A model generated the notes under the pieces. That model made no database searches. It had not been told where the DNA came from and saw only the letters and a program-made list of their open reading frames with translations. A DNA stretch of 48,580 nt from Elusimicrobiaceae bacterium (lineage in GTDB: Bacteria; Elusimicrobiota; Elusimicrobia; Elusimicrobiales; Elusimicrobiaceae), in assembly GCA_028700325.1 (NCBI GenBank), contig JAQVSV010000011.1, positions 1-48,580 on the forward strand, read 5' to 3'. A program made the translations under genes and the position numbers. Positions 2 to 35,937 of the stretch are shown here, one piece after another; position 1 is the first letter of the stretch, and each line of letters starts with the position of its first letter.

Positions 2-223
2 TCGGCCACCTATCAGGCGGGGCTGGCCGACACGCCGCAGGATTGCCCGATGGATCTGCAAATGGCCGCATGGCAATGGATCGCCGACGTGCTCAACCGC
101 CCGGGCGGAGCCGAAAGCGCGGAACGGCTGGGCGATTATTCGGTCAGCTACTTCCGCGACAGCGGCAATATACCAGCCGCCGCCAGAAGCATTTTCGACC
201 GTTACAGAAATTTCGCCGTATAA
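2..223 (+). CDS. Phage head-tail connector protein, 3' part only (gp6-like)
   Basis: The reading frame is open from the window edge to TAA at 221, so only the last 73 residues are present. The tail holds a D-x-P-M-D-L-Q-M-A-A-W segment and a G-D-Y-S-V-S-Y motif, both typical of the C-terminus of the small gp6-like connector proteins that form the ring under the portal in HK97-type siphophages. The next gene starts 12 bases downstream with GGAGG in between, and every following gene is a head-closure or tail gene in the usual order, which supports the call. The family is recognised from motif and gene order, not from a database search. Confidence 0.6.
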   Translation, partial: SATYQAGLADTPQDCPMDLQMAAWQWIADVLNRPGGAESAERLGDYSVSYFRDSGNIPAAARSIFDRYRNFAV

Positions 224-30874: not shown

Positions 30875-31369
30875 ATGCACGGCAAAGGTCATGATATACG
30901 GCAGCGCCCGCGGACAAACCCGCAGCTTATGGACTCGTTCTGCCGGCGGCTGGCCGCCGCGGGCCACAAGCTCACTGCGCCGCGAAAAGCGATGCTCGGA
31001 TATTTCCTCGCGTCAAACCCGCATAAAACTGCGGAGGATATTTATCTGGACCAGCGGCCCAGCGGACTGGGCCGGGCGACGGTGTTCAGAACGCTCAGGA
31101 TATTTCTCGAGTCCGGGCTGATAGTGAAATGCGCCATCGGCGGCAAATACGGGTTCGAGCTGGCTCCGTCCTCGCCCGAACGGCATCATCATCACATGCT
31201 GTGCGTGAAATGCGGCAGGATTATAGAGTTTTCCAGCCCCGCAATGGAAGCGTGCCAGGAAGCCGAAACCAGACGTCACGGGTTCACTCCGCTGGCCCAT
31301 TCCTTTGAAATACGCGGCCTGTGCAGAAACTGCAACACGGAAAAACAACATGACAGAAAAACCGGTTAA
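30875..31369 (+). CDS. fur: Fur-family metal-responsive repressor
   Basis: A protein of 164 residues with the Fur layout: winged helix at about 20-95 (L-T-A-P-R-K-A-M-L, then T-A-E-D-I-Y, G-R-A-T-V-F-R-T-L recognition helix, E-S-G-L-I), then a metal-binding half with H-H-H-H at 104-107, C-x-x-C pairs at 110/113 and 150/153 (structural zinc) and an E-I-R-G-L-C end. It would repress its own operon when iron-replete, fitting its position before feoAB and the dyad in its promoter. The long basic N-terminus (about 18 residues) is unusual. PerR or Zur function cannot be excluded by sequence. It overlaps feoA by 20 bases. Confidence 0.85.
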   Translation: MHGKGHDIRQRPRTNPQLMDSFCRRLAAAGHKLTAPRKAMLGYFLASNPHKTAEDIYLDQRPSGLGRATVFRTLRIFLESGLIVKCAIGGKYGFELAPSSPERHHHHMLCVKCGRIIEFSSPAMEACQEAETRRHGFTPLAHSFEIRGLCRNCNTEKQHDRKTG

Positions 31370-31595
31370 ATCGGTTACGGATATGGAGTTCGGAGAAACC
31401 GCGGTGGTGCGTGAATTCAGCGCGGGGCACGGCGTCGCCCGCAAGCTGCTGGTGATGGGGATCGTGCCCGGCCGGGCAATACGCAAGATTTCCGGCGGCC
31501 GGCACGGGCCGGTTGTTGTGGAATCATCCGGCGTTTCCATTGCGCTGGGCGCATCGCTGGCCGCCAAAATACTTGTCGAACTGGAGCCGGGCTAA
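31350..31595 (+). CDS. feoA: Ferrous iron transport protein FeoA
   Basis: A protein of 81 residues. The ATG at 31350 lies inside the end of the regulator gene; a longer frame starts at 31305 but would add a cysteine-rich stretch that is just the regulator's zinc site in another frame. It is a small SH3-like protein with F-G-E-T-A-V-V-R-E-F, L-L-V-M-G-I-V-P-G, and A-L-G-A-S-L-A-A-K-I-L-V-E at the end, the typical FeoA order (L-x-x-M-G-(I/L)-x-P-G). It helps FeoB move ferrous iron across the inner membrane and lies directly before feoB. Confidence 0.9.
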   Translation: MTEKPVKSVTDMEFGETAVVREFSAGHGVARKLLVMGIVPGRAIRKISGGRHGPVVVESSGVSIALGASLAAKILVELEPG

Positions 31596-33320
31596 ATGCA
31601 GGTATTGCTTACGGGAAACCCGAACGTGGGGAAAAGCGCGGTGTTCTCGCGGCTGACGGGGCTGGCCACAATCTCGGCAAATTACCCCGGCACCACGGTA
31701 ACCGTCAAAAACGGCACGGCGCAGCTCGCCGGGCGCAGTTATAGCCTGACGGACGTGCCCGGAACCTACAGCCTTGAGCCGTCCTGCGAGGCGGAGAATG
31801 CCGCCTGCCGGCTGATCAAAAGCGACGATGTCAGCCTTTTCATTCATGTGCTCGACGCGACCGCTCTGGAACGCAACCTGTTCTTCACGCTGGAAATTCT
31901 TGAGCTGGCCCGCCCGACAATACTGCTGCTCAACAAGTTCGACATAGCGAAACGCCAGGGCATTGACATTGACTGCGCGAAACTGTCCGCCGCGCTGGGC
32001 GTGGCGGTGGTGCCGTTCATAGCGGTCACGGGTGAAGGCGTGGGGAAACTGGCGCGTGAAGCCGGGAAAATAATCGCCGGGCACCCGGCACCGGGTCCGC
32101 GCCCGGCAATGATGTCCGATACGCAGAAATGGCAGTTTATAGGCGCATTGAGCCGCCGCGTTCAGGTCATCCGGCACAAACACGCCTCGTTCGCGGAAAA
32201 ACTGCAGGCCTTGTCCATGCGGCCCGCCACGGGCCTGCCGCTGGCGGCCGCAGTACTGCTGCTCGCGCTGGCCGGCGTGCATTATCTCGGCGAAGCGCTG
32301 ATAGCGTTCGCGCTGGATCCGGTTTATGAAAACTTTTATCTTCCGCTGATCACTTTCGCGCTTTCGCCACTGCAGGACGGGGTTATAAAAACCCTGCTTT
32401 CCGGCGGGCCGGATCCCGCGGCGGCAAATTTCGGCCTGCTGGCCGGCGCGGTGCATATCGCCGCCGTGGAAGTGTTCGCCTATGTCCTGTCGTTCTACTG
32501 CCTGCTGGGCTTGCTGGAGGATACCGGGTACCTGGCCAGAATCGCGGTGCTGCTTGATAACGCACTGCACAAAGTCGGCCTGCACGGACACGCCAGCATC
32601 CCGATAATAATGGGTATGGGCTGCAAGGTGCCGGGTATACTGGCGGCGCGCACTCTGGCGACCCGGCGCGAACGCATTATCGCGCTTTCGATGACGCTGC
32701 TGCTCGCGCCCTGCATTTCCCAGACCGCCATGATAATCGGCGTTATCGGCCCGCAAGGCGAGGGGTATGTGCTGGCGGTGTTCGCCGCGCTGGCGGCGGC
32801 GGGACTGGCGGCGGGCGCGGTCCTGCACCGGCTGTCGCGCGGCGATTCGCCGGAACTGCTGCTCGAAATTCCGCCCTTCCGCCTGCCGCTGTACGGCCCT
32901 TTCATGCTCAAGCTGCGGCTGCGGCTGGCGGAATATATCGTGGAAGCCATGCCGATGATAATGGCGGGCGTGCTGATCATCAATATCGCGGAAATGGCGG
33001 GCCTTGTTCATCTGGCGGAAGAACTGTTCCGCTGGCCGGTCGTCCGGCTGCTGGGCCTGCCGCCGGAAACGGTATCGGTGATCGCGCTGGGGTTTCTGAG
33101 AAAGGACATTTCCATCGCGCTGCTCGCGCCGTTCGGCATGACCGGCGAACAACTGGCGGTGGCGGCGGTATTTCTTTCCATGTATATGCCGTGCGCTGCG
33201 ACACTGCTGGTCATGCTGCGCGAAGCAGGATTGAAAGACTGCGCCCGCGTAACGGCTTTCAACCTGCTGGCCGCGCTCGTCACCGCAGGCCTGCTGAACC
33301 TGCTGTTCCATTTAATCTGA
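31596..33320 (+). CDS. feoB: Ferrous iron transporter FeoB
   Basis: A protein of 574 residues, starting right after the feoA stop. N-terminal G domain: G1 G-N-P-N-V-G-K-S at 7-14, N-Y-P-G-T-T switch near 29-34, G3 D-V-P-G at 53-56 and G4 N-K-F-D at 113-116. After a helical linker come the membrane part and two gate motifs: one around G-M-G-C-K-V-P-G-I-L-A-A-R-T-L (about 343-357), the other around F-L-R-K-D-I-S-I-A-L-L with a late M-Y-M-P-C-A-A. It imports Fe2+ under low-oxygen conditions. It is shorter than the E. coli protein (about 770) mainly by missing the C-terminal tail and having shorter loops. Confidence 0.92.
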   Translation: MQVLLTGNPNVGKSAVFSRLTGLATISANYPGTTVTVKNGTAQLAGRSYSLTDVPGTYSLEPSCEAENAACRLIKSDDVSLFIHVLDATALERNLFFTLEILELARPTILLLNKFDIAKRQGIDIDCAKLSAALGVAVVPFIAVTGEGVGKLAREAGKIIAGHPAPGPRPAMMSDTQKWQFIGALSRRVQVIRHKHASFAEKLQALSMRPATGLPLAAAVLLLALAGVHYLGEALIAFALDPVYENFYLPLITFALSPLQDGVIKTLLSGGPDPAAANFGLLAGAVHIAAVEVFAYVLSFYCLLGLLEDTGYLARIAVLLDNALHKVGLHGHASIPIIMGMGCKVPGILAARTLATRRERIIALSMTLLLAPCISQTAMIIGVIGPQGEGYVLAVFAALAAAGLAAGAVLHRLSRGDSPELLLEIPPFRLPLYGPFMLKLRLRLAEYIVEAMPMIMAGVLIINIAEMAGLVHLAEELFRWPVVRLLGLPPETVSVIALGFLRKDISIALLAPFGMTGEQLAVAAVFLSMYMPCAATLLVMLREAGLKDCARVTAFNLLAALVTAGLLNLLFHLI

Positions 33321-33383: not shown

Positions 33384-35021
33384 ATGAGATCATCGCTTCC
33401 ATGGCTTGCGTTGTTTGTGTTCTGCGGGACAGGGTTTGCCGCCAGCGCGCGCAATATCGTCGAGCTTGGCAACACCTACCTGCATCTGGATTTCTGTTCC
33501 GAAAAAAAGGATATCTGCCGCACGGTGCGGGTCATACTGCCGGACAATTACACAACCGAAAACGCGGTCTATCCTTCTTTTTATATGATTGCGGACTCGG
33601 GCGGAGCGCGCGGCTGGCAGACCGAACAGGTCACGCGCCAGCTCCTGAAAGCCAGAATCACGCCGCCAATCATACTGGTGGAAATCGAGCCGGCGGAAGT
33701 TTCAACCGCGCCCGTCGCCGCCGGCCGCCAGGCGGAGTTCGTCGCGCGCGAACTGGTACCGTATATTGACAGCAATTTCCGCACGCTGCACAGCTCCGAC
33801 AACCGCATTATCGCCGCCGCCGGCGAAGACTGCAAAACAGCGCTCGCAATCCTGCGCAGCTATGACAGCTTCAGCCGCGGCGCGCTGTTTTCGCCGCTCG
33901 TGCCGCAGACGGACGTAAAAAAAACCGGCTTCAACGACCCCAGGCTGAAGCTCTGGCTTGATGCCAGCCCCGCCGACGGATCGGAGCCGGGCCCCAATTT
34001 TCTCACCGAACCTGTTGCCCGGCTGACGGCGTTCGCCGCAGCCCTGAACAACAGCCCGTTCCTTTACGGGCACAATTACCTGACCGCGCTGCGCGAAACG
34101 GCTTTATTCGCGCCGGGCGAAAAAGCCGCCCGGCTGAAAGACGCGCTCACCTTTCTCTCCGACGGACCGGGGTTTGAGCCGGTGTCGGTTTCCGGGCGCG
34201 TTTCCGGCAGAAAGGCGGGGCTCAACCGCGTACCGGAAAACATACTGTTTTCGCTCAAAACCCGTTACAGAAACGGCATCACCGCCGACCGCATTCCCAG
34301 GGAAAACGAAATCAGGGTTTCGCCGCCCTATTTCGGATATCGGAACGGGCTGCTGACACTGCGTTACGGCGCGGCGCCCGGCCCGGTAACCGTAACGGGC
34401 AGGCTGGGCAAACTGACGGGTTCGGCCAAAGTGTCGGTGGTAAAAAAAGCGGCGGACAGTTTCATGGTGACATTTACCGTAACCGCTCCGAAAGACACTC
34501 CTGAAAACGCGAAAATATACCTGTCCGGCAACAGCGCCCTGCTTGGAGGCGGCAAACCGGACGGGATTGCGCTCACACCCGGCAAAACCGGAAGCCGCCA
34601 TTACCGGTTCAGCCGGCGGTTTCCCGCAGGCACGGCTTTGCGTTTCAATTTCACGCTGGGCGATTGCGATACCGCGGAAAAAGATTCGCGGGGCAATTTC
34701 CTGCCGCCCCGGCAACTGCTGGTTACGGCTGACGCGTCAATAAATTTCCGCCCGGCGGCGTGGCTCTCGTCCGACCAGATAAAGAGCAGGAATCTGGCGA
34801 AAAAAATCCAGTTGAAGGTTCTGTCGCCGGCGAAAGCGGCAGGCATGATCGCCGGCCCGATCAAATACCGGACGGACCCGGCAAAATATACGCATCTGCA
34901 AAAGATATTCCCGAAACCGCCGCCCACCGCCGTTTCAACGCATACCGTTTCAGATACCGCGCCCGCCGCCGATACCAAACCGGATACGCAGGCTGCTGTG
35001 GCCGCCGCGCAAAACAAATAA
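33384..35021 (+). CDS. Exported esterase-like protein with degenerate active site and a starch-binding-like domain
   Basis: A protein of 545 residues with a Sec signal (1-19, G-T-G-F-A-A). Residues 25-250 follow the enterochelin-esterase/esterase-D alpha/beta-hydrolase plan (R-T-V-R-V-I-L-P-D-N-Y, Y-P-S-F-Y-M-I-A-D-S-G-G, E-L-V-P-Y-I-D-S-N-F-R-T). At the nucleophile elbow, where G-x-S-x-G is expected, it reads A-G-E-D-C-K (146-151), so the serine is missing. Residues of about 355-440 look like a CBM20 module (F-T-V-T-A-P, I-Y-L-S-G-N-S-A-L-L-G, L-R-F-N-F-T-L-G-D). The tail is Pro/Thr/Ala-rich. It is probably a binding protein rather than an enzyme. It lies 63 bases after feoB but seems to have its own promoter. 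Confidence 0.6.
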   Translation: MRSSLPWLALFVFCGTGFAASARNIVELGNTYLHLDFCSEKKDICRTVRVILPDNYTTENAVYPSFYMIADSGGARGWQTEQVTRQLLKARITPPIILVEIEPAEVSTAPVAAGRQAEFVARELVPYIDSNFRTLHSSDNRIIAAAGEDCKTALAILRSYDSFSRGALFSPLVPQTDVKKTGFNDPRLKLWLDASPADGSEPGPNFLTEPVARLTAFAAALNNSPFLYGHNYLTALRETALFAPGEKAARLKDALTFLSDGPGFEPVSVSGRVSGRKAGLNRVPENILFSLKTRYRNGITADRIPRENEIRVSPPYFGYRNGLLTLRYGAAPGPVTVTGRLGKLTGSAKVSVVKKAADSFMVTFTVTAPKDTPENAKIYLSGNSALLGGGKPDGIALTPGKTGSRHYRFSRRFPAGTALRFNFTLGDCDTAEKDSRGNFLPPRQLLVTADASINFRPAAWLSSDQIKSRNLAKKIQLKVLSPAKAAGMIAGPIKYRTDPAKYTHLQKIFPKPPPTAVSTHTVSDTAPAADTKPDTQAAVAAAQNK

Positions 35022-35050: not shown

Positions 35051-35364
35051 TTATCAACAAAACTTTTGAAAATGCATATTTTAAAAATTTTGTAAACGGT
35101 TTTTTTTAAAATTTACACAGGTCAAGGCCAGTTTATCCACACCCGCAGCGCAAATGCAATAAAAAAGCGTTTTTTTATGCACAAACAGCACCCGGACAGG
35201 ATCTTACGTCGAGAAACCTCTTTAAAAACAGTCCGTTCAATTGGAGAATCAACCTGGAACTGCCGGACTTATCAACAACTTCGTCAAGTTATCAACAGAT
35301 GTTGGCAAATTAATACATTCCGGCATATTCAACTCTGAAAAAACCGCCTTTGAGGTTATCAACA
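35051..35364 (+). other. AT-rich DnaA-box cluster, candidate replication origin
   Basis: The 412 bases between genes hold no ORF of substance. Six plus-strand matches to the DnaA box (TTATNCACA) are seen: TTATCCACA at 35133-35141 and TTATGCACA at 35175-35183 are perfect, and TTATCAACA occurs at 35051, 35269, 35289 and 35356. Positions 35051-35120 contain 57 A/T out of 70, with long A and T runs, suiting an unwinding element, in a GC-rich region. No dnaA, dnaN or gidA is in the window, and gene direction does not flip here. It could instead be a DnaA-titrating or regulatory locus. Confidence 0.5.
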
Positions 35365-35395
35365 CGCTGTCAACGCATACGCTCCGCGCCAGTTT

Positions 35396-35424
35396 TTGTC
35401 TGCGCTTTATTATGTTGCTATAAT
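35396..35424 (+). promoter_or_regulatory. Promoter of the OmpA/Pal-like gene, predicted leaderless
   Basis: TTGTCT (35396-35401), 17-base spacer, perfect TATAAT (35419-35424), 9 bases before the ATG. No Shine-Dalgarno lies in between. Confidence 0.65.
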
Positions 35425-35433
35425 ACCATTGCT

Positions 35434-35937
35434 ATGAAAAACATATTGTTCATTTTTTCAGTGATAACAGTTTTCGCGCTGGCAGGCTGCGGATATAACT
35501 CCATCTATAAAAATCCGAAGCAACGGGAAGAGGCATTGCGGGCGGAGCAGGATATGCAGTCCGTGCGCGAAATGGTGCGCACCAAACAGCTGCCAAAAAT
35601 AGAATTCGAGTCCAACTCGGCGGTGCTGCTCCCGCAGTCTTACAGAACGCTTGATCTGATCTCCGAAATCCTGCTCAATTACTCGAACATGAAACTGACA
35701 GTGGAAGGCCACTGCGACGATATCGGCTCCGACGATTATAACGACGCGCTCTCGCTGGCCCGGGCCAAAGCCGTCAAATCCTATCTGGTGGAACTGGGCG
35801 TTTATCCCGATTATATCCGGACGAAAGGCTACGGCAAGCGCCGGCCGGTCGTTTACGGAACCGACGACGAGGCGCGCGCGCTTAACCGCCGCGTCGAATT
35901 CACGCTTACCACCCGGTCGTGGCAATCGGTATTTTAG
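35434..35937 (+). CDS. Peptidoglycan-associated OmpA/Pal-type lipoprotein
   Basis: A protein of 167 residues. The ATG at 35434 gives a lipoprotein signal (N-I-L-F-I-F-S-V-I-T-V-F, lipobox L-A-G-C with Cys19). Residues 60-165 are an OmpA-C domain: I-E-F-E-S-N-S-A-V-L-L near 61, V-E-G-H-C-D-D-I-G-S-D-D-Y-N near 95 (usual x-G-H-T-D), L-S-L-A-R-A-K-A-V near 112, and N-R-R-V-E-F at the end, all contacts for diaminopimelate of peptidoglycan. It holds the outer membrane to the cell wall. It stands alone without tolB nearby, so it may be a Pal paralogue rather than Pal itself. Confidence 0.85.
   Translation: MKNILFIFSVITVFALAGCGYNSIYKNPKQREEALRAEQDMQSVREMVRTKQLPKIEFESNSAVLLPQSYRTLDLISEILLNYSNMKLTVEGHCDDIGSDDYNDALSLARAKAVKSYLVELGVYPDYIRTKGYGKRRPVVYGTDDEARALNRRVEFTLTTRSWQSVF

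What the first reader, a model, noticed from the sequence alone, without database searches (positions are those of the whole stretch)
35051..35364. Candidate replication origin or DnaA-binding locus between pseudo-esterase and OmpA/Pal genes
Six DnaA-box-like nonamers, all on the same strand, lie within 314 bases, two of them exact TTATNCACA matches. A 70-base block (35051-35120) has only 13 G/C, while the surrounding genes are GC-rich. Boxes plus an AT-rich unwinding-type region in a gene-free gap are the standard makeup of oriC. Against it: no dnaA, dnaN, parAB or gidA here, and genes on both sides mostly point the same way. A datA-like titration site would also fit.
Basis: partly seen in the sequence, partly recalled or inferred. 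Interest (0 to 1): 0.7.

Follow-up and report, generated by a model that had tools for sequence, protein, structure and literature searches.

The report
Conserved DnaA-box cluster, not the origin
A short stretch packed with landing sites for DnaA, the protein that starts DNA copying, is real and kept across almost a whole bacterial family, but it lies far from the true replication start, so it most likely soaks up or resets DnaA rather than starting replication.

Summary
The six boxes are real and far beyond chance. They are not oriC. In the window's own genome the GC skew does not change sign across the array, but it does at dnaA on another contig. In a complete relative (G001, 1,643,562 bp) the cumulative skew minimum is at dnaA, and the densest DnaA-box cluster of the chromosome is the equivalent array, 339 kb away upstream of the same Pal-like gene. 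G015 and G007 agree. The array is essentially single-copy and present in 79 of 90 genomes of the family (Elusimicrobiaceae, inferred). Its geometry is fixed: two direct boxes exactly 20 bp apart, about 84 bp, then direct boxes about 11 bp apart followed by inverted boxes. Boxes are near-invariant, spacers are not. No full-length match occurs outside the family in a phylum sample. It stays intact where it is away from Pal (G101) or cut off from it by a pilin gene (G005), so it is not simply Pal's promoter. Best reading: a lineage-specific DnaA control locus outside the origin, of the datA/DARS/DnaA-box-cluster kind, most likely titrating DnaA. Binding and effect on initiation are inferred. The window's own copy is the most diverged.

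The parts
35051..35059 (+). DnaA box TTATCAACA (offset -218 from the 20-bp pair)
35051..35120 (.). AT-rich block, 13 G/C of 70
   Evidence: the most AT-rich 70 bases of the window
35133..35141 (+). DnaA box TTATCCACA (offset -136; genus g3 has a box at -139)
35175..35183 (+). DnaA box TTATGCACA (offset -94)
35269..35277 (+). DnaA box TTATCAACA, first of the family-wide pair with 20-bp phasing (offset 0)
35289..35297 (+). DnaA box TTATCAACA, second of the pair (offset +20)
35356..35364 (+). DnaA box TTATCAACA (offset +87; relatives have theirs at about +104, followed by boxes at +115, +127 inverted and +137 inverted, which are not recognisable here)
35266..35375 (+). match to the array model R1 (25.9 bits, E 1.3e-5; the weakest copy in the family; the window's sequence is itself one of the 31 model rows)
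35396..35424 (+). sigma-70-like promoter TTGTCT-17-TATAAT just upstream of the Pal-like gene, downstream of the array
   Evidence: consensus match only
33384..35021 (+). esterase-like protein gene, upstream neighbour; a similar-looking gene also precedes the array in G001, G005 and G043 (judged by eye from the translations)
35434..35937 (+). OmpA/Pal-like lipoprotein gene, usual downstream neighbour of the array

Best explanation
A DnaA-binding control locus outside the origin. DnaA occupies helically phased boxes (offsets 0, +20, about +104, +115, +127 inverted, +137 inverted, all close to multiples of 10.5 bp). The AT-rich, unconserved spacer of about 75 bp lets the two box groups form one nucleoprotein complex. 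That complex most likely holds (titrates) DnaA once the locus has been replicated part-way along an arm, damping re-initiation at the dnaA/dnaN origin. Shown: box conservation, geometry, single copy, position away from the skew origin, separability from the pal gene. Inferred: that DnaA binds it, looping, titration, and the effect on initiation. Whether it also changes the ATP/ADP state of DnaA (as datA or DARS do) is open.
For: Box count far beyond chance. The 20-bp pair is found in 66 of 90 family genomes, one per genome in all but G067, whose second lies beside dnaA; the reversed control gives 1 hit in all. Offset table over 45 loci: 45/45 at 0 and +20, clusters at +103..106, +114..116, +126..129 inverted, +136..137 inverted; box columns mostly 1.5-2.0 bits in the pair and first distal box, spacers about 0.2. 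Array model: 79 of 90 genomes; secondary hits are weak and mostly at dnaA or overlapping the main array. Densest TTATCMACA cluster in the 1.6 Mb of the G001 chromosome examined, 338.7 kb from the skew minimum at dnaA. G015 array about 438 kb from dnaA inside one skew arm; same for G007. Own genome: no skew change at the array, clear change at dnaA. Array intact without pal next to it (G101) or with a pilin gene between (G005). DnaA of this genome has a normal DNA-binding domain, Bac_DnaA_C, 85.9 bits.
Against: No binding or replication data. The array reads towards a nearby gene, usually pal, so a promoter role is not excluded. Missing in G003, whose Pal is closest to the window's, and in a subgroup of g3 (G010, G012, G097, G099, G104, G105; G020 matches only beside dnaA), so it is not essential. 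The window's own copy lacks the inverted distal boxes. No IHF-site enrichment in the spacer. The array model was built from the family's own arrays.
Confidence: 0.66

Rival explanations
1. DnaA acts here as a transcription factor that ties expression of the Pal-like lipoprotein (an outer-membrane protein that may act in division) to the replication cycle.
For: In all 49 loci tested with the array, apart from one further pair that lies beside dnaA, pal lies downstream on the same strand, mostly within about 165-260 bp; a promoter-like site sits between array and gene in the window.
Against: Distance to pal varies from 165 to 414 bp and is 897 bp in G005, where an oppositely oriented pilin-like gene intervenes. 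In G101 the array is next to an alcohol-dehydrogenase-like gene and fmt, while pal is on another contig. In G012 and G020 pal sits behind a pyrG-like gene without the array.
Confidence: 0.14
2. A DARS-like site that reactivates ADP-DnaA through opposed DnaA boxes, promoting rather than restraining initiation.
For: The distal group has convergent boxes with a 3-bp gap (+115/+127). E. coli DARS1 as scanned here has convergent boxes with a 5-bp gap plus a third box 3 bp on; opposed boxes I and II are the core of DARS (PMC8682772).
Against: Gap and order differ from DARS1; E. coli datA also has a convergent pair with a 3-bp gap; no IHF-like motif enrichment; the window's own copy lacks the convergent pair.
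Confidence: 0.12
3. The chromosomal replication origin, or a second origin.
For: Box cluster plus an AT-rich block in a gene-free gap.
Against: Skew switches at dnaA and not at the array in four genomes of four genera; dnaA-dnaN gaps carry their own boxes.
Confidence: 0.03

Closest known systems
E. coli datA
   Same: Single non-coding locus outside oriC with about five DnaA boxes; contains a convergent box pair with a 3-bp gap; box sequence and spacing conserved among strains (PMC4585315).
   Different: No IHF site detected in the spacer; different box order; lies 20.6% of the chromosome from dnaA in G001 and about 27% in G015, whereas datA is about 10% from oriC (that figure from memory); no sequence homology shown.
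E. coli DARS1/DARS2
   Same: Opposed DnaA boxes close together, away from oriC (PMC8682772).
   Different: Gaps differ (3 bp against 5 bp in DARS1), plus a distant direct pair; no Fis or IHF sites shown.
Bacillus subtilis DnaA-box clusters outside oriC
   Same: Clusters of DnaA boxes outside oriC; deleting six of them gives early initiation (Okumura et al. 2012 as reviewed in PMC13220808).
   Different: Six clusters there, one array here; here a fixed multi-box geometry is kept across a family.

Membership tests
oriC | coincides with the GC-skew minimum | tested here: not met
oriC | cluster of DnaA boxes next to an AT-rich stretch | tested here: met
oriC | replication starts there | not testable with these tools
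   no read-depth data
datA | non-coding, multi-box locus outside oriC with conserved spacing | tested here: met
datA | IHF-binding site between boxes | tested here: not met
   best mismatches to WATCAANNNNTTR mean 2.40 against 2.22 in shuffles (E. coli consensus; IHF/HU of this phylum may prefer other sites)
datA | stimulates DnaA-ATP hydrolysis | not testable with these tools
   needs biochemistry
DARS1/DARS2 | core of three boxes with boxes I and II opposed | tested here: inconclusive
   opposed boxes present in most relatives but with another gap and order; absent in the window's own copy
DARS1/DARS2 | releases ADP from DnaA | not testable with these tools
   needs biochemistry
DnaA-box cluster outside oriC (B. 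subtilis type, titration) | several good DnaA boxes away from oriC | tested here: met
DnaA-box cluster outside oriC (B. subtilis type, titration) | deletion advances initiation | not testable with these tools
   needs genetics

The most novel reading that the evidence does not exclude
Elusimicrobiaceae evolved their own single-copy DnaA control site with a fixed, helically phased geometry, a third solution beside datA/DARS and the Bacillus clusters, possibly one that switches the DnaA nucleotide state without IHF.
Probability: 0.35. Interest if true: 0.75.

Novelty: new variant of a known kind. Interest (0 to 1): 0.6.

Why it matters
Control sites for DnaA outside oriC are worked out mainly in E. 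coli relatives and Bacillus. A conserved, portable, single-copy array in another phylum would suggest that such control arose repeatedly, and E. minutum (likely G001) is a cultured organism in which it could be tested. A search of the held papers for this phylum together with DnaA boxes returned only two papers, neither about such a site by title and abstract.

Tried and rejected
oriC: rejected by skew in four genomes. Structured RNA: no Rfam match in the gap. IHF site in spacer: none above shuffles. Pure pal-promoter role: weakened by G005 and G101. Phylum-wide element: only weak matches of 27 bits or less outside the family, though the strict filters there may lose weak copies. One region request was malformed and was repeated. 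The first naming scan, with the own DnaA, found nothing; the second, with the G001 DnaA, named relatives as Elusimicrobiales/Elusimicrobium. The E. coli DARS2 core was not located in the stretch scanned, so only DARS1 and datA were compared. The B. subtilis cluster paper was not held and is cited through a review. A first attempt to hand in this report was malformed.

Full report
Observation. The six nonamers, their strand, the two exact TTATNCACA matches and the AT-rich block are as described. Shuffles of the gap never gave more than 3 boxes in 20,000, and five of the genome's 34 TTATCMACA sites are in this gap. The gap lies between an esterase-like gene and an OmpA/Pal-like lipoprotein gene; nothing in Rfam matches the gap.

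Not the origin. dnaA is on contig C15, followed by a dnaN-like start and with boxes on both sides of dnaA. C15 skew is -0.03 in the first 4 kb, which holds dnaA, and about +0.05 to +0.14 in the 4-kb blocks beyond it up to 36 kb; in the window it is about -0.02 on both sides of the array. In G001, a single 1,643,562-bp contig of which bases 1-1,600,000 were read, the cumulative skew minimum is at base 508 and the maximum at 812,645; dnaA is at 592-1914. The densest box cluster is at 338,694-338,884, just upstream of the Pal orthologue. In G015 the sign changes at dnaA (C1, 222 kb) while the array (C2, 484 kb) lies inside a negative arm, about 438 kb away if the two contigs close the circle. In G007 the sign changes at dnaA (C1, 352.5 kb) and the array region is uniformly negative. 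G015 and G007 were sampled in 20-kb pieces.

Conserved element. A pair of boxes at exactly 20 bp occurs in 66 of 90 family genomes, once per genome except in G067, whose second copy is beside dnaA; the reversed control hit once overall. In 45 loci the boxes fall at 0, +20, about +104, +115, +127 inverted and +137 inverted, often with one at about -202 inverted (genus g6) or -139 (g3). Not every locus keeps every distal box. Box positions carry up to 2 bits and the spacer about 0.2. A sequence-only model of the array finds it in 79 of 90 genomes; an 80th, G020, matches only beside dnaA. In a phylum sample of 199 genomes no match above 27 bits lies outside the family. In an order-wide sample the pair pattern occurs once outside the family, in G132. 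These genomes are related, so the counts are not independent events.

Separability from pal. Pal follows the array in nearly every genome. In G005 a pilin-like gene on the opposite strand lies between. In G101 the array lies between an alcohol-dehydrogenase-like gene and an fmt-like gene, and pal is on another contig beside the esterase-like gene. In G043 the separation is only a contig end. G012, G020 and G003 have pal without the array. So array and pal can part in both directions. Gene names in relatives were read by eye from translations, apart from dnaA and pal, which were searched.

Mechanism. DnaA here has ordinary ATPase and DNA-binding domains, so binding to consensus boxes is expected but not shown. 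The offsets are near multiples of 10.5 bp, which favours one assembly on one face of the helix. Position outside the origin, strong boxes, single copy and portability fit a DnaA-titrating control site. The distal opposed boxes recall DARS (PMC8682772) and datA, but gaps differ and no IHF site is enriched. Deleting DnaA-box clusters in B. subtilis causes early initiation (PMC13220808), the closest functional precedent.

Limits. No binding, expression or read-depth data. The window's own copy is the most diverged: 25.9 bits, with the inverted distal boxes unrecognisable. Most genomes are drafts, so some absences may be assembly gaps.

Noticed in passing
L002:397-2649 (own genome, contig C66); also G001:C1:162924-163394 and most family genomes: A second protein with a DnaA-type ATPase domain; the own copy is 750 aa with a proline-rich stretch and no DnaA DNA-binding domain in Pfam. 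It is found beside true DnaA in nearly every family genome and could be a partner or regulator of DnaA.
   Followed up: partly
arrays of genus g6, about 10-17 bases upstream of the +104 box (e.g. L028, L118): A conserved TGTAGAGTA-like motif inside the otherwise unconserved spacer; binding protein unknown.
   Followed up: no
L049:12638-16127 (G001): rpoD-like and dnaG-like genes lie about 3 kb upstream of the array in G001; not so in the window.
   Followed up: no
window 30875-33317: A Fur-family regulator gene and a FeoB-like gene lie just upstream of the esterase-like gene; ordinary iron-uptake genes.
   Followed up: no
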